From: Coprothermobacter sp. | GTDB taxonomy: Bacteria; Coprothermobacterota; Coprothermobacteria; Coprothermobacterales; Coprothermobacteraceae | Reading direction: 5' to 3' | Length of the DNA: 13,135 nucleotides | NCBI GenBank assembly: GCA_003476705.1 | Contig: DMVM01000036.1 | Span: forward strand, 1 to 13,135 | In this document: positions 1-8,962 of the stretch, piece by piece | Position numbering within the stretch: position 1 is the stretch's first letter | Layout of the letters: each line of letters opens with the position of its first letter | Translations under genes and position numbers: made by a program | Notes under the pieces: generated by a model | The model's database searches: none | Seen by the model: only the letters and a program-made list of their open reading frames with translations | Told to the model about the DNA's origin: nothing

Positions 1-300
1 AAACAAGGGTATCCATGGAACCAACGCAAAGAAGACTGCCATGAGTGGCATACCAGTTATGATAAAAGGCATGCGTCTTCCAATTTTCGTGCTCACTTTG
101 TCTGAATAAGCAGCAATAATGGGTATGAGCGTAACTGCAAAAATGTTATCGATATTCATAATCCAACCGGTGGCAAAGTTGCTCATACCAAATTGACTTT
201 GCAGTATGACAGGCACATCCGCATTGTACAAAGCCCATACCACCGAAATACCCATAAAACCAAACCCCAGTAGGAAAAGCTTCTTGTAATCGATTTTCAT
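1..300 (-). CDS. MFS transporter, N-terminal part (cut by window edge)
   Basis: The first 100 codons of a major facilitator superfamily transporter; the rest lies beyond base 1. The ATG is at 300-298 and is preceded by a strong AGGAGGT ribosome site about six bases upstream. The product begins MKIDYKKLFLLG, has three hydrophobic stretches, and carries the MFS loop 2-3 motif (SDKVSTKIGRRMPF, about residues 66-79), which helps gate the transport cycle. Aligned without gaps by eye, about 56 of its 100 residues match the transporter at 472-1710, so the two are tandem duplicates. The GRR-MP form of the loop recalls the sugar-transporting GPH/SLC45-like branch, but the substrate cannot be read from the sequence. 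It probably has its own promoter in the 171-base gap upstream. Confidence 0.88.
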   Translation of the reverse strand, partial: MKIDYKKLFLLGFGFMGISVVWALYNADVPVILQSQFGMSNFATGWIMNIDNIFAVTLIPIIAAYSDKVSTKIGRRMPFIITGMPLMAVFFALVPWIPLF

Positions 301-2537: not shown

Positions 2538-2549
2538 TATAATATTTCC
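2538..2549 (+). promoter_or_regulatory. Promoter -10 box placed for a leaderless fab operon mRNA
   Basis: A perfect TATAAT at 2538-2543 is followed by six bases and then the ATG of the first fabD-like gene at 2550. Transcription normally starts about seven bases after the -10 box, which would put the first base of the mRNA on or next to the A of the ATG. No ribosome-binding sequence is present before the ATG. I see no good -35 box at 16-18 bases. The divergent E1-like gene shares this AT-rich core on the other strand (TATTAT or TATAAA), but it has a normal leader and ribosome site. Confidence 0.6.
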
Positions 2550-3392
2550 ATGGCAACAAAGATTGCACATGCGTACCCGGGGCAAGGTGCACAGTTCCCA
2601 GAAATGGGAAAGTACCTTTCAAGGAAGGCATTGCAAATTGCTAATGAAAGCTTCCAAAAGCTAATAAGTGCTTTGGAAGAACGAGATAAAGAAACGGTCA
2701 CAGAAACAGCATTCGTACAGCCTTCTGTTTACCTAGTAGAAGCGTCCCTCATGGAAAAGCTGCCATCTCCATTCCTAGTCTTAGGGCACAGTTCAGGAGA
2801 ATATGCGGCCTTGGTGGAGGCTAGAGTTTGGGATGTTCGAACTGGATTTGAAATCATAAGGGCTCGTGGCCATTTCAGCGCTTCCTTCGCGCCCAAGGGT
2901 TTCATGGTGCAAATCCCCTCAAGTAGCAGGCAACAGGTGCTTAGAGAATTCAAGTCTGTATACTTGGCTGCCATTAACAGTGAAGACCGAGTAGTTGTAG
3001 CAGGTGTAGAAGCTGATTGGAAAAAAGTGAGGAAGTTCTTAGAAGAAAACCACGTGCAATATACATTGCTACACGTGTCAGCACCTTTTCACACGCCCTA
3101 CATGGAAAAAGCCGCACAAAGGCTGCGTTCCTTCTTGGAAATTAATCCGGGCAAAATGCCCCTGATTCCTGTTTACTTAAATGCCCTAAGGCGCACCGTA
3201 CAAAGTTATGATGATGTAATCGAAGGTTTAACCTTAGGTTTGACAAGACCCATCAACTGGTTGGAAACCCAAGAGTATCTAAGGAAAAGTGAAATGAGCA
3301 CATTGGTGGAAGTGTACCCACGCCCTTATTTGAGCAAGTTTACCTCCTATCCGACTTATAACGTGTTGGAGTTTTACCATTTGACTTTGTAA
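2550..3392 (+). CDS. fabD: Malonyl-CoA:ACP transacylase-like protein, first copy
   Basis: A 280-residue FabD-like acyltransferase. FabD moves malonyl from CoA to the carrier protein through an acyl-serine, supplying the extender unit for chain elongation in the cytoplasm. Motifs: PGQGAQ (10-15, oxyanion glutamine), VQPS (56-59), GHSSGE (79-84, nucleophile S81), R106 for the malonyl carboxylate, and FHTP (180-183, catalytic H181). The S-to-R distance of 25 equals that in E. coli FabD. The nucleophile elbow has Ser where FabD almost always has Leu (GHSLGE), which may change pocket shape. The protein is shorter than E. coli FabD (about 309 residues). It opens the fab operon, has no ribosome site and appears leaderless. 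A second copy follows 45 bases downstream, so one of the two may have a different acyl preference. Confidence 0.88.
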   Translation: MATKIAHAYPGQGAQFPEMGKYLSRKALQIANESFQKLISALEERDKETVTETAFVQPSVYLVEASLMEKLPSPFLVLGHSSGEYAALVEARVWDVRTGFEIIRARGHFSASFAPKGFMVQIPSSSRQQVLREFKSVYLAAINSEDRVVVAGVEADWKKVRKFLEENHVQYTLLHVSAPFHTPYMEKAAQRLRSFLEINPGKMPLIPVYLNALRRTVQSYDDVIEGLTLGLTRPINWLETQEYLRKSEMSTLVEVYPRPYLSKFTSYPTYNVLEFYHLTL

Positions 3393-3437
3393 CATTTCGC
3401 CCCCCAGGTGCATCTAATAGTATTGAGGTGATAAAAC

Positions 3438-4277
3438 GTGCGAAAAATGGCTCATCTTTTTCCAGGACAAGGCATACAGAAAGTTGGTATGGGAAAGTAC
3501 TTCAGTAGAACAGTAGAAAACTTACTAATGGCTGAAGATCCCAAGCTACTGGAAGTTGCCTGGGTAGGCCCTCAAGAGGAACTTAATAAGACCATTAATG
3601 CTCAACCAGCTATAACATTAATGCAAGTGTCGCTGGCAGAAGACTTGGACAAACCAGATTTGGCTGTGGGGCACAGTTTGGGTGAATACGCAGCACTCTG
3701 GGAAGCCGGAGTTTGGGATCTGCAATCCTTGTACAAGGTTGTAAAAGCGCGTGGATACTACATGCAAGAACTCTGCCCAGATGGATGGCTAATTGCACTC
3801 AGGGACAGAGAATCTGCAGATTTTGTAGTAAACGCATTCAAAGGAAGGGTTTTCTACTCGAACATTAACAGTCAAAGGCAGGTACTTGTGGGAGGTATCA
3901 TTGAAGATTTGCCGGCAGTAGAAGCCACATTGAAGGAAGAGCGTATTGCCTATAAGAGGATACAAGGAAACAAGCCTTTCCACACACCTTACTTAGAAAA
4001 GGCTTCAAAAGCTTTCTACGAATTCCTTCTCACCGTTGAAGGCAAGGATCCCGCATTTGATGTGTATTTGAACATTGCAGACGATGTAGTAACAGATTAT
4101 GGGGAAATTGTTAAGCTCTTGGCTGAGTCTTTAGCAAAGCCAGTAGATTGGACAAGAACTGTTGCCTTCTTAGAAAGCAAGAACTTTGACATGCTTGTGG
4201 AAATCAACTTGGATCCATTGCTGGCCAAACTCACCGGTCAAAAGGTGGTATTGGTTCATGAACTGGCAACTCTGTGA
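3438..4277 (+). CDS. fabD: Malonyl-CoA:ACP transacylase, second copy
   Basis: A 279-residue FabD, closer to the consensus than the first copy. Motifs: PGQGIQ (9-14), AQPA (55-58), GHSLGE (78-83, nucleophile S80), R105, and FHTP (181-184, catalytic H182). All catalytic residues are present, so this is the more likely housekeeping malonyl transacylase. The start is GTG, seven bases after a GAGGTG ribosome site; the in-frame ATG at 3447 would be too far from that site. It shares unusual blocks with the first copy (MGKY-SR after the PGQG loop; FHTPY-EKA), which suggests an old duplication within this lineage rather than separate acquisition. Its last 20 bases overlap the start of the fabG-like gene. 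Confidence 0.92.
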   Translation: MRKMAHLFPGQGIQKVGMGKYFSRTVENLLMAEDPKLLEVAWVGPQEELNKTINAQPAITLMQVSLAEDLDKPDLAVGHSLGEYAALWEAGVWDLQSLYKVVKARGYYMQELCPDGWLIALRDRESADFVVNAFKGRVFYSNINSQRQVLVGGIIEDLPAVEATLKEERIAYKRIQGNKPFHTPYLEKASKAFYEFLLTVEGKDPAFDVYLNIADDVVTDYGEIVKLLAESLAKPVDWTRTVAFLESKNFDMLVEINLDPLLAKLTGQKVVLVHELATL

Positions 4278-4932
4278 AAAAACGTTCGCCATTGTAGGAA
4301 GTGGCGATATCGGAAAAGCCACAGCTCGAGCTCTAGAACAGGAAGGCGCCAAAGCCATTCTGCTTAGTAGAAAAAGCGAACATTGTTTGGATGTCACTGA
4401 CGAAGAATCTTTTAAGCAGTATGGGTCGTGGTCCAAGATATTAGATGGATTGGTTTATACTGCAGGCATAACGGTGGACAAACCAGTAGGACTTCTCACA
4501 TTGGCTGACTGGCAACGAGTCATAGAAACAAACCTGACCGGTGCATTCCTGACAGCCAAACATTTTTACATGGCTTTAAAGCCCAACAGCAGTGTGGTAT
4601 TCTTAAGTTCCATAGTAGCTCAGTGGGGAAATATTGGACAAGCAGCCTACAGCTCTTCTAAGGCAGGTTTGGAAGCTTTGATGAAGACGCTGGCAAAAGA
4701 ATGGGCAAGAAAGGGTATCAGAGTCAACGCCATAGCGCCAGGTTTAGTTAACACCAAAATGACAACAGAGTTGCCTCAAATGGTCGTCGATGGTTTTACT
4801 CAGCACACACTGCTAAAGCGATTGGCTGAACCTGAAGAGGTGGCAAATGTCATCTGTTTCTTGCTCTCACCTCTGTCTTCCTTCATGACTGGGCAAGTCA
4901 TTTACGTAGACGGAGGCTTTTTTACTGCATGA
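4258..4932 (+). CDS. fabG: Compact FabG-like 3-oxoacyl-ACP reductase (SDR)
   Basis: A short-chain dehydrogenase of 224 residues, about 20 shorter than typical FabG (roughly 245). In this operon it should reduce 3-oxoacyl-ACP with NADPH. The catalytic set is complete: N92 (NLTG), S118, Y131 and K135 (YSSSK), and the APG motif at 160-162. Two cofactor motifs are altered: TGxxxGIG is replaced by GSGDIG (14-19), and NNAG reads YTAG (67-70). The stretch between strand 2 (AILLSR) and the LDVTD motif (44-48) is almost absent, giving a compact Rossmann fold as in some short SDRs. Start: ATG at 4258, ten bases after an AGGTGG site, overlapping the upstream fabD copy by 20 bases. An earlier in-frame ATG at 4186 would only add residues read from the wrong frame of fabD. 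Substrate is inferred from context. Confidence 0.85.
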   Translation: MNWQLCEKTFAIVGSGDIGKATARALEQEGAKAILLSRKSEHCLDVTDEESFKQYGSWSKILDGLVYTAGITVDKPVGLLTLADWQRVIETNLTGAFLTAKHFYMALKPNSSVVFLSSIVAQWGNIGQAAYSSSKAGLEALMKTLAKEWARKGIRVNAIAPGLVNTKMTTELPQMVVDGFTQHTLLKRLAEPEEVANVICFLLSPLSSFMTGQVIYVDGGFFTA

Positions 4933-4996: not shown

Positions 4997-5212
4997 ATGA
5001 TGGACATGGTAAAAAGCTTATTGGAAGAAAATGGTTATCCCACAGAAGGCTTAACTGAGGAGACCAATTTTGAAAGCTTGGGTGTGGATTCCTTGGGTTT
5101 GGTAGATCTTACCCTTTCTTTGGAACAGAAAGGCTATACAATTCCCGAAGAAAAGCTATCCGAAATCAAGACCGTGGGCGATCTGCTCCGGGTGCTAGGT
5201 GGTAATGCATGA
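4997..5212 (+). CDS. acpP: Acyl carrier protein
   Basis: A 71-residue acidic carrier protein that holds the growing acyl chain on a phosphopantetheine arm. The attachment site is the classic LGVDSLGLVDL block (28-38), with S32 as the modified serine. It is slightly shorter than E. coli ACP (77 residues) but covers all four helices. A strong GGAGGT lies ten bases before the first of two adjacent ATG codons; the second ATG (5000) is also possible. The 64-base AT-rich gap upstream, the longest within the fab operon, and the strong ribosome site fit the need for more ACP than enzymes. The stop overlaps the fabF start (ATGA). The AcpS transferase that would activate it is not in the window. Confidence 0.95.
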   Translation: MMDMVKSLLEENGYPTEGLTEETNFESLGVDSLGLVDLTLSLEQKGYTIPEEKLSEIKTVGDLLRVLGGNA

Positions 5213-6429
5213 AACGAATCGTAATCACCGGAGTAGGTGTAGTAACACCCTTCGGCGTAGGCCTGCAAACGTTTAAGGAAGGTATATTTGCAGGACGAAA
5301 CGGCATAAAACCTATAACCAGATACAGTGATCTGCCAGTGAAATATGCAGGGGAAGTGGGTTTTGATCCCCTGCAGTACTTTGATAAGAAAGATGCCAAA
5401 AGATTGGACCGCTTCACGCAGTTTGCCCTAGTGGCAGCTCGAGAGGCAATAGAAGCTGCTCAGTTAAAGGATATTGATCCATACACGGTGGGAGTAGTAT
5501 TCGCATCCGGCATGGGCGGTCTGGAGTACTTGGAGAACCAAATAGTGAACCTGTACACAAAGGGACAAAGAACAGTTTCGCCTTTCACTGTTCCAGCTTC
5601 CATCATTAACATAGCGGCTGCAAACATTGCCATAGAACACGGTTTTCATGGTCCCGCATTCGCACCCACTACGGCATGCGCAGCTTCCCTAGACGCCATC
5701 GGACAAGGATACACCTTACTGCAACAAGAAGAAGACCTTAACGTGGTACTAGTTGGAGGCTCTGAAGCCAGTATTACTCCCTTAGGTATCACTAGTTTCC
5801 ACAATATGAAAGCACTATCACCGTTGAATGAACCCACTGCATCACGACCATTTGATAAAAGGCATTCTGGATTTGTTATGGGAGAAGGCGCTGGTGCTTT
5901 GGTTTTGGAAAGCTTGGAACATGCATTAAAACGTGGTGCTAAACCATTAGCCGAAGTAGTGGCTTATGCTGCCACCTGCGATGCTCATCATGTGACGGCT
6001 CCAGACCCTTCTGCTGAGCCTCAAGCAAAAGCCATAGAAAAAGCATTAAAGAGAGCAGGCATAACACCAGCACAAATTGACTACGTATGTGCTCATGGAA
6101 CGTCCACTCCACTAAACGACGTTATTGAAACAAAAGCAATAAAGCAAGCTTTAGGAGACCATGCTTACGAAATACCTGTGAGTTCCGTAAAATCCATGAT
6201 AGGACATTTGCTGGGCGCATCAGGCGCTGTGGAAACCGTAGCAACTGTTTTGGCTTTGCAAGAACAAATGGTGCCACCCACGATAAACTTCCAGGAACCT
6301 GCCGAAGAGTGTGACCTTTACTATGTGCCAAACAAAGCCGAGAAAAGAACTATCAACTATGCTCTAAAGGAGTCATTGGGTTTCGGAGGTCATAACTCCG
6401 TATTGGTGCTGAGGCGCTATGAAGGTTGA
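5209..6429 (+). CDS. fabF: 3-oxoacyl-ACP synthase II (KAS II)
   Basis: A full-length 406-residue condensing enzyme that joins malonyl-ACP to the acyl chain with loss of CO2. The Cys-His-His triad is clear: C157 in TTACAAS, H296 in CAHGTST and H333 in KSMIGHLLGA, with K328 five residues before it as in E. coli FabF. The C-terminal gate loop GFGGHN (391-396) is present. The start ATG overlaps the acpP stop by four bases, so translation is coupled. Its last 11 bases overlap the sigma factor gene. FabF rather than FabB is chosen from the thiolase-fold length and the motif set. With no FabH in the window, this enzyme could also start chains by decarboxylating malonyl-ACP, but fabH may lie elsewhere. 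Confidence 0.96.
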   Translation: MKRIVITGVGVVTPFGVGLQTFKEGIFAGRNGIKPITRYSDLPVKYAGEVGFDPLQYFDKKDAKRLDRFTQFALVAAREAIEAAQLKDIDPYTVGVVFASGMGGLEYLENQIVNLYTKGQRTVSPFTVPASIINIAAANIAIEHGFHGPAFAPTTACAASLDAIGQGYTLLQQEEDLNVVLVGGSEASITPLGITSFHNMKALSPLNEPTASRPFDKRHSGFVMGEGAGALVLESLEHALKRGAKPLAEVVAYAATCDAHHVTAPDPSAEPQAKAIEKALKRAGITPAQIDYVCAHGTSTPLNDVIETKAIKQALGDHAYEIPVSSVKSMIGHLLGASGAVETVATVLALQEQMVPPTINFQEPAEECDLYYVPNKAEKRTINYALKESLGFGGHNSVLVLRRYEG

Positions 6430-6991
6430 ACATGTGCTCATTGAAAAAGTAAAACGTGGTGATCCAAAAGCTTTTCAGGAACTCTTTAGTCGTTTTGAGC
6501 GTGATATTTACACGTTAGCATACAGACTGCTGGGAAACCGAGAGGACGCTGAGGATGTAACCCAAGAAGTAGCGTGGATATTGTGGTCCAAGATAAAATC
6601 CTTCAGAAACGAATCCAGCTTGAGCACGTGGCTTTACCGCGTAACAGCAAATACTGCTCTTCAACTTCTTAGAAAAAAGCGAAAAATCATTTATGTTGAG
6701 CCCAGTGCTCATACAGCAGAGGATATGCATCTTATGCTAGAAATGGCTGTAATGGACTTACAAGAAAATCAACGCACACTCATAGTTCTGCGTGACATTT
6801 ATAACTTCCCCATGAAAGAGATCGCAAGAATGTTGGACATATCAGAGGAAAACGTGCGGGTGCAACTCCATAGGGCTCGGAAAGCCTTAAGAAAGAGATT
6901 AGAAGGAGGTGAGAACGGTGGAATGCAAAGAAGTAGTGGAACTAATACCAGCCTACGTAAAGGGCGAGCTGACGAGAAATCAAATGAATGA
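6419..6991 (+). CDS. ECF-family RNA polymerase sigma factor
   Basis: A 190-residue sigma-70 family protein of the extracytoplasmic function group: a region 2 domain (about 15-85, with the DAEDVTQEV core-binding block at 43-51 and WLYRVTANTAL at 71-81) and a region 4 helix-turn-helix (about 110-160, EIARMLDISEENVRVQLHRARK), with no region 3. It directs RNA polymerase to a set of stress or envelope promoters. The start ATG lies inside the end of fabF (11-base overlap), with GAGG four bases upstream. Region 4 ends near residue 161; the last 29 residues (GENGGMQRSSG onward) have no domain, and most of them are encoded in DNA that also codes for the anti-sigma factor in another frame. Finding such a gene between fabF and fabZ is unusual and suggests control of membrane lipid synthesis. 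Confidence 0.95.
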   Translation: MKVEHVLIEKVKRGDPKAFQELFSRFERDIYTLAYRLLGNREDAEDVTQEVAWILWSKIKSFRNESSLSTWLYRVTANTALQLLRKKRKIIYVEPSAHTAEDMHLMLEMAVMDLQENQRTLIVLRDIYNFPMKEIARMLDISEENVRVQLHRARKALRKRLEGGENGGMQRSSGTNTSLRKGRADEKSNE

Positions 6992-7226
6992 GGTCTCTGA
7001 GCACCTGCAAAATTGCAATAGCTGCTATGAAGAGGCTGAGAAATGGGAAGAGCTGTTTGCCGAACTTCGAAGTTTGGTTAGCTACACCCACAAGCCAGAG
7101 AAGAAAGTAGCACAGTTAACCAGAGGTAAGACATCTTCCTTAACACCGTGGATAGTAGGTGGTGTTGGTTTGGGTGTGGGCGTACTAATAGCTGCAGGAG
7201 GTGCCTTGCTTTGGAGGAAAAAATGA
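6918..7226 (+). CDS. Membrane-anchored zinc-finger anti-sigma factor
   Basis: A 102-residue partner of the sigma factor upstream. The N-terminal zf-HC2 (ZAS-type) domain has C3 and H29-x3-C33-x2-C36, the zinc set found in anti-sigma factors that clamp ECF sigma factors in the cytoplasm. After a charged linker (about 40-75) there is one membrane helix (about 78-99) that is rich in glycine, with overlapping G-x3-G pairs, and has Trp at each end (W78, W99). Only R-K-K follows, so there is no outside sensor domain. The GTG at 6918 is chosen because a perfect AAGGAGGT (6903-6910) lies seven bases before it; the GTG at 6909 overlaps that ribosome site. It overlaps the sigma gene by 74 bases and fabZ by four. 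Confidence 0.9.
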   Translation: MECKEVVELIPAYVKGELTRNQMNEVSEHLQNCNSCYEEAEKWEELFAELRSLVSYTHKPEKKVAQLTRGKTSSLTPWIVGGVGLGVGVLIAAGGALLWRKK

Positions 7227-7612
7227 TACCCCTTCCCCATCGCTGGCCATTTTTATTTGTTGACAGCTTTAAGGCGGAAGGAAATATGTGTGAAGCACAG
7301 TATTATGTGGACCCTAATTTACCCTTTTTTCAGGGTCATTTCCCGGGTTATCCTATCTTTCCAGGCGTACTGCACGTTGAAGCCATGGCTCAGACGCTGG
7401 GGCTACTGGTTAAAACACCTGGGCTACCACTACTGGCACGGATTGAGCAGGCTAAATTTATGCAGCCCATTTTCCCAGGTGACAACATTACCATAAAGGC
7501 GAAGCTGGAAAACGAAAAAGCGGGCTTCTATTTTGGAAGCGGACAAATTTTCAAAGATGATACGCTGGTTAGTGAAGCGAAAATAGTCTTTAAGGTGGCG
7601 GTGGAACAATGA
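7223..7612 (+). CDS. fabZ: 3-hydroxyacyl-ACP dehydratase
   Basis: A 129-residue single hotdog-fold dehydratase that turns 3-hydroxyacyl-ACP into trans-2-enoyl-ACP. Family motifs: the opening LPHRWPFLFVD (4-14), then GHFPGYPIFPGVLHVEAMAQ (38-57), holding catalytic H39 and E53, 14 residues apart as in other FabZ enzymes. The length is a little under the usual 140-150. The ATG at 7223 overlaps the anti-sigma stop as ATGA and follows GGAGG; longer in-frame extensions upstream would be read from the membrane-helix codons of the anti-sigma gene in another frame. No FabA-type isomerase signature is apparent, so how or whether unsaturated fatty acids are made is unclear. Confidence 0.95.
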   Translation: MIPLPHRWPFLFVDSFKAEGNMCEAQYYVDPNLPFFQGHFPGYPIFPGVLHVEAMAQTLGLLVKTPGLPLLARIEQAKFMQPIFPGDNITIKAKLENEKAGFYFGSGQIFKDDTLVSEAKIVFKVAVEQ

Positions 7613-8502
7613 TCTCTTTGGAAGAACTACTTGGCATTGAATATCCCATCATACAAGGCGGCATGGCACGCGTTGCAAAAGCACCACTGGTGGCGGCAGT
7701 GAGTGAAGCCGGCGGCTTAGGAGTACTAGGTGGCGCTGCTATGACACCTGAGGAACTCAGGGATCAAATTCACGAAGTCAGGAGAAACACATCTAAACCT
7801 TTTGGCGTGAATCTGATGCTTCAAAGCGAGTTCTGGCAGGACCAAATAAAGGTCGTGCTGGAAGAAAGACCTCCAGTGATTACTACGGGAGCAGGCAATC
7901 CTTCCAGTTTCATGAAAACCCTCCAAGAAAAAGGCATCAAAATATTGCCTTTGGTTGGTTCTGCAAATCAAGCACTTTTATTGGAGAAAGCTGGTGCTGA
8001 CGGAGTAATTGCGGAAGGCAAGGAATCAGGTGGCCACATTGGCGATGTGACCACCATCGTACTGGTAAATGCAGTTCTTAAATCAGTTACGAACATTCCT
8101 GTCATAGCCGCAGGCGGCATAGTAGACAAAGATAGTTACCGCGCCATGAGAGCCATGGGTGCAGCAGGCGTTCAAATGGGAACGCGTTTTGTAGCCTCTG
8201 AAGAGGCACCTATTAGTCCTGCATACAAGGACGTGGTGCTAAAAGCTAATGAACGGTCCACTGTGGAAGTGGGCAGACGGTTCAAACACGCTGTGCGCAT
8301 ATGGAGGAACCAGTTAGCACAAAAGCTTATTGAGGCAGAATACAACGGTGATGAAGAAACGTTTTCCAACCTCATGCTGGGAGCTCTTATCAGAGCGGTT
8401 GAAGGCGATTTAGAGAACGGCGCCTTCATGATGGGGCAAAGCGCAGGATTAATAAAAGAAATCCTGCCCGTTAAAGACATAATAAGGTCCATAGCAGCAT
8501 AA
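7609..8502 (+). CDS. fabK: Enoyl-ACP reductase II, FMN-dependent
   Basis: A 297-residue TIM-barrel flavoprotein that completes the elongation cycle by reducing enoyl-ACP with NAD(P)H. It begins with the family block YPIIQGGMA (12-20) and continues with AGGLGVLGG (34-42), FGVNLM (65-70), TTGAGNPS (92-99), ESGGHIG (139-145, with catalytic-type H143), PVIAAGGI (164-171) and VQMGTRF (188-194) for FMN phosphate. By recall, the sequence follows pneumococcal FabK closely through most of its length. The same fold includes nitronate monooxygenases, but the GGHIG form and the position at the end of a fab operon favour FabK. It replaces FabI, so triclosan resistance would be expected. The start overlaps the fabZ stop (ATGA). 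I see no clear terminator after it. Confidence 0.94.
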   Translation: MISLEELLGIEYPIIQGGMARVAKAPLVAAVSEAGGLGVLGGAAMTPEELRDQIHEVRRNTSKPFGVNLMLQSEFWQDQIKVVLEERPPVITTGAGNPSSFMKTLQEKGIKILPLVGSANQALLLEKAGADGVIAEGKESGGHIGDVTTIVLVNAVLKSVTNIPVIAAGGIVDKDSYRAMRAMGAAGVQMGTRFVASEEAPISPAYKDVVLKANERSTVEVGRRFKHAVRIWRNQLAQKLIEAEYNGDEETFSNLMLGALIRAVEGDLENGAFMMGQSAGLIKEILPVKDIIRSIAA

Positions 8503-8606: not shown

Positions 8607-8897
8607 ATGCAATGGTTAGTTGGTTTGCTTGGTATCTGGTATTTGGTATCCCCATGGATCCTTCAGGCATCGGCAGGAATGTGGAACGGAATTATCGTAG
8701 GTATTATAGTAGCAATTTGTGCTTACATGTTCCCAGCTGAGAAATCATGGCAGAAATGGCTTGGCGTATTAATGGGTATTTGGGCAATCATAGCAGCATT
8801 CTTCTTAACACAGGGAACTGGCTTCGTGTGGAACAACGTCATTGTTGGTATCCTAATGGCTATCGCAGGTTTTGCTGCACTTGGTGGAAATAGGTAA
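8607..8897 (+). CDS. SPW-repeat small membrane protein
   Basis: A 96-residue, very hydrophobic protein made of two tandem repeats of about 40 residues. Repeat 1 (about 4-43) runs LLGIWYLVSPW ... WNGIIVGIIVAI, and repeat 2 (about 51-92) runs LMGIWAIIAAF ... WNNVIVGILMAI. Each repeat should form two membrane helices, so four in all. The SPW triplet that names the family is at 15-17; in repeat 2 it has become AAF. The function of this family is unknown. A strong AAGGAGGT lies eight bases before the ATG. It is followed by a strong terminator, and it sits directly after the fab operon, so it may be read from the operon, from its own promoter, or both. A link to membrane lipids is suggested only by position. 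Confidence 0.85.
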   Translation: MQWLVGLLGIWYLVSPWILQASAGMWNGIIVGIIVAICAYMFPAEKSWQKWLGVLMGIWAIIAAFFLTQGTGFVWNNVIVGILMAIAGFAALGGNR

Positions 8898-8933
8898 CAC
8901 CATAGCTAACTTGAAGGCTTAGGTAATTGATTA

Positions 8934-8962
8934 GGGGCTCCTCGTAGTGGGAGCCCCTTTTT
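8934..8962 (+). terminator. Rho-independent terminator
   Basis: GGGGCTCC (8934-8941), an eight-base loop, GGAGCCCC (8950-8957), then TTTTT (8958-8962). The perfect 8-bp GC-rich stem with an immediate T-run is a textbook terminator for plus-strand transcripts, ending the SPW gene and any read-through from the fab operon. On the minus strand the stem is followed only by TAATC, so it would be weaker for the aldolase operon that ends at 8985. Confidence 0.95.

What the first reader, a model, noticed from the sequence alone, without database searches (positions are those of the whole stretch)
6419..7226. Sigma/anti-sigma switch built into a fatty acid synthesis operon
Seen: an ECF sigma gene and a zf-HC2 anti-sigma gene lie between fabF and fabZ, on the same strand, with overlaps of 11, 74 and 4 bases. 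Known: zf-HC2 anti-sigma factors hold ECF sigma factors at the membrane until a signal frees them. Fatty acid operons are usually run by DNA-binding repressors such as FapR, FabT or FadR. Inference: here membrane state may set fab expression, or sigma output may be tied to fab expression, giving a feedback loop between lipid supply and envelope response. I do not recall such an arrangement being described.
Basis: partly seen in the sequence, partly recalled or inferred. Interest (0 to 1): 0.75.

Follow-up and report, generated by a model that had tools for sequence, protein, structure and literature searches.

The report
Self-controlling sigma switch for membrane lipids
A heat-loving bacterium carries, inside its fatty-acid-making operon, a sigma factor and its membrane-anchored inhibitor, and the DNA around them suggests that this pair switches on membrane lipid synthesis, itself included, which would be an unusual way for a bacterium to control its lipid supply.

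Summary
In detail: an ECF sigma gene (6419-6991) and a zf-HC2 anti-sigma gene (6918-7226) sit between fabF and fabZ with overlaps of 11, 74 and 4 bases, in a Coprothermobacter. It is not a chance insertion. The fabF-sigma-anti-sigma-fabZ-fabK block recurs in three other Coprothermobacter genomes and two genomes of a second family; in a third family (WS2-type) the pair is first in a fab-acc operon. A related genus without fabF lacks the pair too. I found an ECF-type promoter, TGTAAC-N18-RTCTAA, at the operon head in all six genomes that have the pair and a readable head. In relative G002 (one contig) the exact motif occurs twice, before the fab operon and before plsY; C. platensis has the same two sites only. 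The genus without the sigma keeps plsY but lacks the motif there. Best reading: a dedicated, autoregulated lipid-synthesis sigma held by a membrane-anchored anti-sigma with no outside sensor domain. The sigma-fab-plsY coupling is well supported by sequence; the signal is unknown and there are no expression data. Precedents (B. subtilis SigW, P. aeruginosa SigX and a fabH3-ECF operon) make it a new variant of a known kind.

The parts
2538..2543 (+). TATAAT, 6 nt before the fabD1 ATG: housekeeping-type, probably leaderless promoter P1
   Evidence: sequence; the same TATAAT-N6-ATG stands before fabD1 in G002, G001 and G004. The -35 is weak and the site is not listed by the promoter scan
2550..3392 (+). 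fabD1, malonyl-transferase paralogue
   Evidence: Acyl_transf_1 3.2e-21; best NCBIfam fabD, below cut-off
3388..3417 (+). predicted ECF-type promoter P2, TGTAAC-N18-ATCTAA, at the head of fabD2-fabG-acpP-fabF-sigma-anti-sigma-fabZ-fabK; overlaps the last 5 bases of fabD1
   Evidence: exact match (at up to 2 mismatches it is the only match, but 1.68 would be expected by chance, so exactness and conservation carry the weight); same motif at the fab head in G002, G001, G005, G006, G007
3438..4277 (+). fabD2, malonyl-transferase
   Evidence: Acyl_transf_1 6e-21; best NCBIfam fabD, below cut-off
4258..4932 (+). fabG, 3-oxoacyl-ACP reductase
   Evidence: adh_short_C2 3.5e-53; best NCBIfam 3oxo_ACP_reduc, below cut-off
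4997..5212 (+). acpP, acyl carrier protein
   Evidence: PP-binding 5.5e-12
5209..6429 (+). fabF, 3-oxoacyl-ACP synthase II
   Evidence: TIGR03150 558.5 bits, over cut-off
6419..6991 (+). ECF sigma factor, 190 aa
   Evidence: Sigma70_r2 and r4_2; nearest solved relative of the family profile is B. subtilis SigW, E 9.5e-36
6918..7226 (+). zf-HC2 anti-sigma factor, 102 aa: zinc-type anti-sigma domain, one hydrophobic stretch (78-99), 3-residue tail
7223..7612 (+). fabZ, 3-hydroxyacyl-ACP dehydratase
   Evidence: FabA domain 1.8e-20; best NCBIfam FabZ, below cut-off
7609..8502 (+). fabK-type enoyl-ACP reductase
   Evidence: NMO 5.6e-67; best NCBIfam FabK, below cut-off
8607..8897 (+). small SPW-domain membrane protein, last gene before the terminator
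   Evidence: SPW 2.7e-17; kept beside fabK in G001-G004
8933..8958 (+). intrinsic-terminator-like hairpin with T-run
   Evidence: 10 pairs, 7 G-C

Best explanation
The pair is a dedicated, autoregulated lipid-synthesis switch. The ECF sigma factor is held at the membrane by the anti-sigma factor. When freed it directs RNA polymerase to TGTAAC-N18-RTCTAA promoters. In Coprothermobacter these stand at the head of the core fab operon, which encodes the sigma and anti-sigma themselves, and before plsY, which spends acyl chains on phospholipid. Overlapping reading frames probably couple the translation of sigma, anti-sigma and FabZ, so fab output, sigma and its inhibitor rise together: positive feedback with a built-in brake. 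A separate TATAAT promoter before fabD1 could give basal read-through that primes the loop. Shown by sequence: gene order and its conservation, the motif, its sites, its absence where the sigma is absent, and the anti-sigma build. Inferred: that this sigma binds the motif, that the anti-sigma holds it, and the signal. The anti-sigma has no extracytoplasmic domain in any of the 16 family rows aligned, and its zinc ligands are not conserved, so I think it most likely senses the bilayer through its single membrane helix (about 50%), rather than an outside signal or zinc/redox.
For: Linkage: fabF-sigma-anti-sigma-fabZ-fabK in window, G001 (= C. platensis, L022), G002, G003, G005, and G006 (on two contigs that both carry the start of the sigma gene; the join is inferred); in G007 the pair is first on the contig in sigma-asig-fabZ-fabK-fabH-accD-accA-accB-accC-birA-fabD-fabG-acpP-fabF, with 297 bases readable before it. 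Co-loss: G004 lacks fabF genome-wide, lacks fabD2/fabG/acpP/sigma/anti-sigma/fabZ at the locus and has no close sigma homologue. Promoter: exact motif at the fab head in 6 of 6 genomes with the pair and a readable head. Of 13 exact TGTAAC-N18-RTCTAA sites in 9 genomes, 6 are fab heads, 3 plsY heads, 1 a DegV head, 2 lie at one shared intergenic place in G005/G006 and 1 inside an ORF. G002: exactly 2 sites against 0.54 expected by composition. 935 ortholog pairs G002/G001: a perfect site in both upstream regions for 2 pairs, fabD2 and plsY; 200 permuted motifs gave none. Unbiased dyad scan: 10 of 5803 conserved dyads recur at two loci, and 4 of these 10 are registers of this motif. In G004 plsY is kept but has no motif, although three other ECF-like matches remain. 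Partner build: RsiW-like by sequence, E 0.0036; anti-sigma structures rank first in both fold comparisons. FapR: 0 of 9 genomes.
Against: No transcript, binding or mutant data. Assignment of the motif to this sigma is indirect (own operon, absence in G004). plsY lacks an exact site in G005-G008, so only the fab head is shared by all three families. G003 has no site at all, though its fab head and the start of its main plsY are not on its contigs. G008, which has fabZ-fabK but no pair in the assembly, has no site in the 1252 bases before fabZ (best 4 mismatches). At up to 2 mismatches the conserved pairs (3) lie within the permuted-motif range (mean 1.0, maximum 5), so only the perfect sites stand out. 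Three other dyad signals also recur at two loci in the unbiased scan. The G007 sigma is unresolved against other ECF factors. The motif was first seen by eye in G005-G007. The G004 loss could be one deletion. P1 could alone supply fab transcription.
Confidence: 0.75

Rival explanations
1. Hitch-hiking: the pair shares the fab promoter for expression level only and controls an unrelated envelope regulon elsewhere.
For: ECF pairs often act on many genes (recalled); overlapping frames alone show only co-expression. G005 and G006 have a motif site at one shared place with no obvious target.
Against: In G002 and C. platensis the only exact sites of the motif are before fab and plsY. In G004 the pair is absent together with the fab core.
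Confidence: 0.12
2. The conserved dyad is a real promoter of fab and plsY but is read by another sigma factor or is a regulator's operator; the embedded sigma does something else.
For: G002 has three further ECF-like matches; no binding data.
Against: The motif heads the sigma's own operon in three families, ends about 10 nt before the sigma start codon in G007, and is not found at fab or plsY in G004, which keeps three other ECF-like matches but not this sigma. The two hexamers are not a palindrome.
Confidence: 0.1
3. About the signal only (not exclusive with the best explanation): the anti-sigma is released by a cytosolic cue such as acyl-ACP, malonyl-CoA, zinc or redox, not by the membrane.
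For: No extracytoplasmic domain in 16 of 16 aligned rows; in the window protein Cys/His at 3, 29, 33, 36 could be redox-active.
Against: The His-x3-Cys-x2-Cys motif is absent in 12 of 12 rows that are not Coprothermobacter-like, so zinc/redox is not the shared signal; a hydrophobic stretch is kept in 16 of 16.
Confidence: 0.35
4. Chance insertion of a mobile or stray ECF pair with no regulatory meaning.
For: One related genome (G008) has an IS605-type tnpB directly before fabZ.
Against: Same position across two families, same operon in a third, conserved promoter.
Confidence: 0.03

Closest known systems
Bacillus subtilis SigW/RsiW and its promoter inside fabHA-fabF
   Same: Nearest solved relatives of both family profiles by sequence; a SigW promoter in a fab operon tunes membrane fluidity (PMC8144471 and PMC3498285, passages).
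   Different: SigW is not encoded in the fab operon (recalled), has a broad stress regulon, and RsiW is removed by regulated proteolysis (PMC8144471, passage); here the pair lies in the fab operon, the predicted regulon is fab plus plsY, and the anti-sigma has no outside domain.
Pseudomonas aeruginosa SigX
   Same: An ECF factor whose overexpression raises many FAS enzymes and changes fluidity (PMC3875570, passages).
   Different: SigX is called an orphan ECF there, no ECF consensus was found before the FAS operons, and the effect may be indirect (same passages).
P. aeruginosa fabH3-PA14_21550(ECF)-PA14_21560(anti-sigma) operon
   Same: An ECF/anti-sigma pair predicted in one operon with a FAS gene (PMC3875570, passages).
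   Different: One fabH paralogue only, and overexpression of that ECF did not induce the FAS genes tested; here the pair is within the core operon and the predicted promoter is the operon's own.
FapR, FabT, FadR type fatty acid regulators
   Same: They adjust fab gene expression to lipid state (recalled; FapR also in PMC8144471, passage).
   Different: They are DNA-binding regulators that sense acyl compounds (recalled); FapR matched in 0 of 9 genomes of the phylum. FabT and FadR were not searched.

Membership tests
ECF sigma factors | sigma-70 regions 2 and 4 with no region 3, about 160-200 aa | tested here: met
   (regions 2 and 4 only), 190 aa
ECF sigma factors | directs RNA polymerase to an ECF-type promoter | not testable with these tools
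   only the conserved motif was shown
Zinc-type anti-sigma factors (zf-HC2, ZAS) | Cys...His-x3-Cys-x2-Cys | tested here: met
   window protein C3, H29, C33, C36; zf-HC2 over cut-off
Zinc-type anti-sigma factors (zf-HC2, ZAS) | the same ligands in the orthologues of the other families | tested here: not met
   0 of 12 such rows have the motif; zf-HC2 below cut-off (2) or absent (1) for the three scanned
Anti-sigma domain fold | three-helix N-terminal domain as in RslA, RsiW, MucA, RskA, ChrR | tested here: inconclusive
Membrane anti-sigma factors released by site-1/site-2 proteolysis (RsiW, RseA type) | one TM helix with an extracytoplasmic domain for site-1 cleavage | tested here: not met
   hydrophobic stretch in 16 of 16 rows, but only 3-9 residues follow it
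Autoregulated sigma/anti-sigma operon | the operon carries the sigma's own promoter | tested here: inconclusive
   shared motif at the operon head in 6 of 6 genomes with the pair and a readable head; sigma dependence not tested
FapR control of fab genes | FapR gene in the genome | tested here: not met
   0 of 9 genomes, several incomplete; the control search rang in 5 of 14 known genomes, 1 over cut-off

The most novel reading that the evidence does not exclude
Across the phylum Coprothermobacterota a sigma factor encoded within the FASII operon is the dedicated direct activator of fatty acid synthesis, joined in Coprothermobacter by plsY, and its inhibitor reads the bilayer with nothing but one membrane helix: a self-contained lipid homeostat in place of a FapR/FabT/FadR-type repressor.
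Probability: 0.45. Interest if true: 0.85.

Novelty: new variant of a known kind. Interest (0 to 1): 0.72.

Why it matters
A 2013 paper (PMC3875570, passage) states that no global direct positive regulator of FAS genes was recognised in E. coli, P. aeruginosa or B. subtilis. A sigma factor built into the fab operon, with plsY as its second target, would be such a regulator. It would tie acyl-chain supply and phospholipid use to one membrane-anchored switch. The anti-sigma, with no outside domain, offers a minimal system for asking how a cell reads the state of its own membrane.

Tried and rejected
Fab promoter as ECF promoter at fabD1: the conserved element there is TATAAT 6 nt before ATG, also in G004, which lacks the sigma, so it was set aside as housekeeping-type.

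Further regulon members: with 1 mismatch allowed G002 has 14 sites, of which 3 precede an ORF; the read part of G001 has 16, of which 3 precede an ORF. The third G002 site precedes an ORF that I read as an aldo/keto reductase, with only weak matches in the read part of G001, and the third G001 site has its first base changed and lies 103 bases from a short ORF; neither was counted. With up to 2 mismatches, 3 conserved pairs at spacer 18 (6 at spacers 17-19) were found, against a mean of 1.0 and maximum of 5 for permuted motifs at spacer 18; the imperfect ones were not claimed.

Linkage outside the phylum: 41 non-phylum loci with sigma relatives were scanned (23, 13, 5). None has a fab gene beside the sigma; 2 of the 20-kb loci hold a fabG-like (SDR) gene about 1.0 and 3.3 kb away, and 1 locus an anti-sigma-like stretch. 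In one search, 217 of 386 genomes matched but only the 30 best loci were cut out (7 of them of the phylum), so linkages elsewhere are not excluded.

plsY in other families: no exact motif in G005, G006, G007, G008. Tree of 44 sigma proteins: the Coprothermobacter and 3DAC-type sigmas form one clade (100/97); G007 is unresolved, and the six rows labelled fab-linked do not come out as a single group (4 changes; 3 forced by well-supported branches), partly because unlabelled proteins of unseen context (P0014-P0019) lie among them.

Zinc sensing as the shared signal: rejected because ligands are not conserved. Rfam and tRNA scans of the window: nothing. Literature: listings showed no title or abstract on a sigma pair within a core fab operon; I read passages of three papers only, and only open-licence papers are held.

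Full report
WHAT IS THERE. The window is contig C6 of a 1.18 Mb, 163-contig draft, about 79% complete. The same operon with 84% and 94% identical sigma lies in C. platensis DSM 11748 (L022) and a Coprothermobacter MAG (L023), so the source is a Coprothermobacter. On the + strand lie fabD1, fabD2, fabG, acpP, fabF, the ECF sigma, the anti-sigma, fabZ, fabK and a small SPW membrane protein, then a terminator-like hairpin. Through the 74-base overlap the last 24 or so residues of the sigma share DNA with the start of the anti-sigma.

CONSERVATION. Searches of the 9 genomes held for the phylum gave fabF in 8 and fabK in 9. Gene maps: G001, G002, G003 (same genus; the G003 contig is cut in acpP) have the same block. 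G005 (another family; its anti-sigma is 99% identical to that of 'bacterium 3DAC') has fabD-fabG-acpP-fabF-sigma-asig-fabZ-fabK. G006 has the same on two contigs that both carry the start of the sigma gene; the join is inferred. G007 (its anti-sigma is 84% identical to one named candidate division WS2) has the pair first on its contig, before fabZ, fabK, fabH, accD, accA, accB, accC, birA, fabD, fabG, acpP and fabF, 14 genes in all (families checked). G008, its sister, has fabZ-fabK preceded by an IS605-type TnpB gene, and no pair in the assembly; its best sigma match lies elsewhere beside another zf-HC2 protein with a long outer part. G004 (same family as the window, another genus) keeps fabD1, fabK and SPW at this locus but lacks fabF genome-wide, and lacks fabD2, fabG, acpP, sigma, anti-sigma and fabZ at the locus; no close sigma homologue is left. 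So the pair stays with the fab core in three families and is absent where the core is absent, although the G004 case may be one deletion.

PROMOTER. Reading the operon heads of G007, G005 and G006 side by side I saw TGTAAC, 18 bases, RTCTAA in each. I then looked for it in Coprothermobacter: it stands in the fabD1-fabD2 gap of the window (3388-3417), of G002 and of C. platensis. In the window and G002 the TAA of TGTAAC is also the fabD1 stop codon, but in C. platensis fabD1 ends earlier and the motif is still there. In the window it is the only match at up to 2 mismatches; 1.68 would be expected by chance at that looseness, so that number alone says nothing. A scan of all 9 genomes for GTAAC-N18-RTCTAA gave 24 sites against 10 for the pattern read backwards. 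The first T was not part of that pattern and acts as an internal check. Of the 13 sites that have it, 12 lie outside ORFs, apart from a few bases of overlap with gene ends (6 fab heads, 3 plsY heads, 1 DegV head, 2 at one place in G005/G006), and 1 is inside an ORF; of the 11 without it, 10 are inside ORFs. G003 has none; its fab head is off its contig. G008 has none of the 13, and none with fewer than 4 mismatches in the 1252 bases before fabZ. The likeness to ECF promoters (AAC in the -35, TCTAA in the -10 as for E. coli sigma-E) is from recall.

GENOME-WIDE TEST. I read all of G002 (1.425 Mb) and 1.023 of 1.423 Mb of the main C. platensis contig. G002 has exactly 2 exact sites, against 0.54 expected from base composition; positions within 150 bases upstream of an ORF make up 7.8% of both strands, and both sites are there. 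One search also covered the unread part of G001 and found no further TGTAAC site (first base). Among 935 reciprocal-best ortholog pairs, 2 have a perfect site in both upstream regions: fabD2 and a 242-aa protein that is PlsY-type by Pfam (G3P_acyltransf 2.9e-50). No permuted motif of 200 drawn gave a perfect pair. At up to 2 mismatches the 3 conserved pairs are within the range of the permuted motifs (mean 1.0, maximum 5), so the weight lies on the perfect sites. The spacers have diverged (33% identity at plsY, 67% at fab). A scan for any 6-N14..20-6 dyad kept in both species with a spacer at most 70% identical found 5803, of which 10 recur at two gene pairs; 4 of those 10 are registers of this motif, and the other 6 belong to three other signals, one of them two neighbouring genes. 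G002 has three PF02660 matches; only the best-scoring one carries the site.

CO-LOSS. In G004 plsY keeps its place beside the S41-type protease gene (45% identical over the part read; family), but the best motif match has 3 mismatches and the region has AAATATAATG instead. G004's only GTAAC-N18-RTCTAA site is antisense inside an ORF, while three other ECF-like matches remain in that genome. This links the motif to this sigma rather than to the others, without proving it.

HOW IT PROBABLY WORKS. Sigma, anti-sigma and enzymes are probably made from one mRNA. Free sigma would raise fab, itself and, in Coprothermobacter, plsY. More anti-sigma inserted in the membrane would end the burst. A signal from the bilayer, or less likely from acyl-ACP or malonyl-CoA, would set the balance. 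P1 (TATAAT, 6 nt before the fabD1 ATG in four genomes) could give the basal transcript. These steps are inferred.

PRIOR ART AND NOVELTY. Seen in passages: SigW promoter inside fabHA-fabF; SigX and the fabH3-PA14_21550-PA14_21560 operon, whose ECF did not induce the FAS genes tested. My searches (listings) showed no title or abstract on a sigma pair within a core fab operon or on sigma factors of Coprothermobacter lipid genes; only open-licence papers are held. FapR matched in 0 of 9 genomes. I call it a new variant of a known kind.

LIMITS. No expression or binding data. The plsY link holds in Coprothermobacter only. The G007 sigma's place in the tree is unresolved. Most genomes are drafts.

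Noticed in passing
L067 1500-1529 (G005:C8) and L075 1500-1529 (G006:C89): Exact TGTAAC-N18-RTCTAA at one shared intergenic place between an NMT1-like (TAXI-type) binding-protein gene and a thioredoxin-reductase-like gene (families), pointing at no gene start; perhaps a small or antisense RNA.
   Followed up: partly
L079 1500-1529 (G005:C89): Exact motif 20 nt before a DegV-family gene (PF02645). DegV proteins include FakB fatty-acid-binding subunits (recalled), so this may be a third lipid target in that genome; no exact site was found for it in G006.
   Followed up: partly
whole genomes G000-G006: No FabH and no AccC over the family cut-offs in these 7 genomes, several of them drafts, against both in G007 and G008. 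How malonyl-CoA is made and how chains are started is unclear; Coprothermobacter carries two fabD genes.
   Followed up: partly
L061 9116-11226 (G004): A genus of the same family lacks fabF genome-wide and the fab core at this locus but keeps fabD1, fabK and plsY; it may live on external fatty acids.
   Followed up: partly
window 2538-2550: TATAAT exactly 6 nt before the fabD1 ATG in four genomes: a probably leaderless transcript.
   Followed up: partly
L060 5086-6210 (G008): IS605-type tnpB gene (OrfB_IS605, Cas12f1-like_TNB) directly upstream of fabZ, at the place where the sigma pair stands in the sister genome.
   Followed up: partly
genomes G001, G002, G004: Three PF02660 (PlsY-type) matches each, one at 165-173 bits and the others at 52-115 bits; G003 has only lower-scoring ones.
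   Followed up: no
window 1-300 and 472-1710: Two tandem MFS-type transporter genes; in G002 the neighbouring paralogue is 47% identical to the window gene 472-1710.
   Followed up: no
G007:C156 and G007:C24: Several further ketosynthase-like frames, one within a 2050-codon open frame, suggesting a polyketide or PUFA-type cluster.
   Followed up: no
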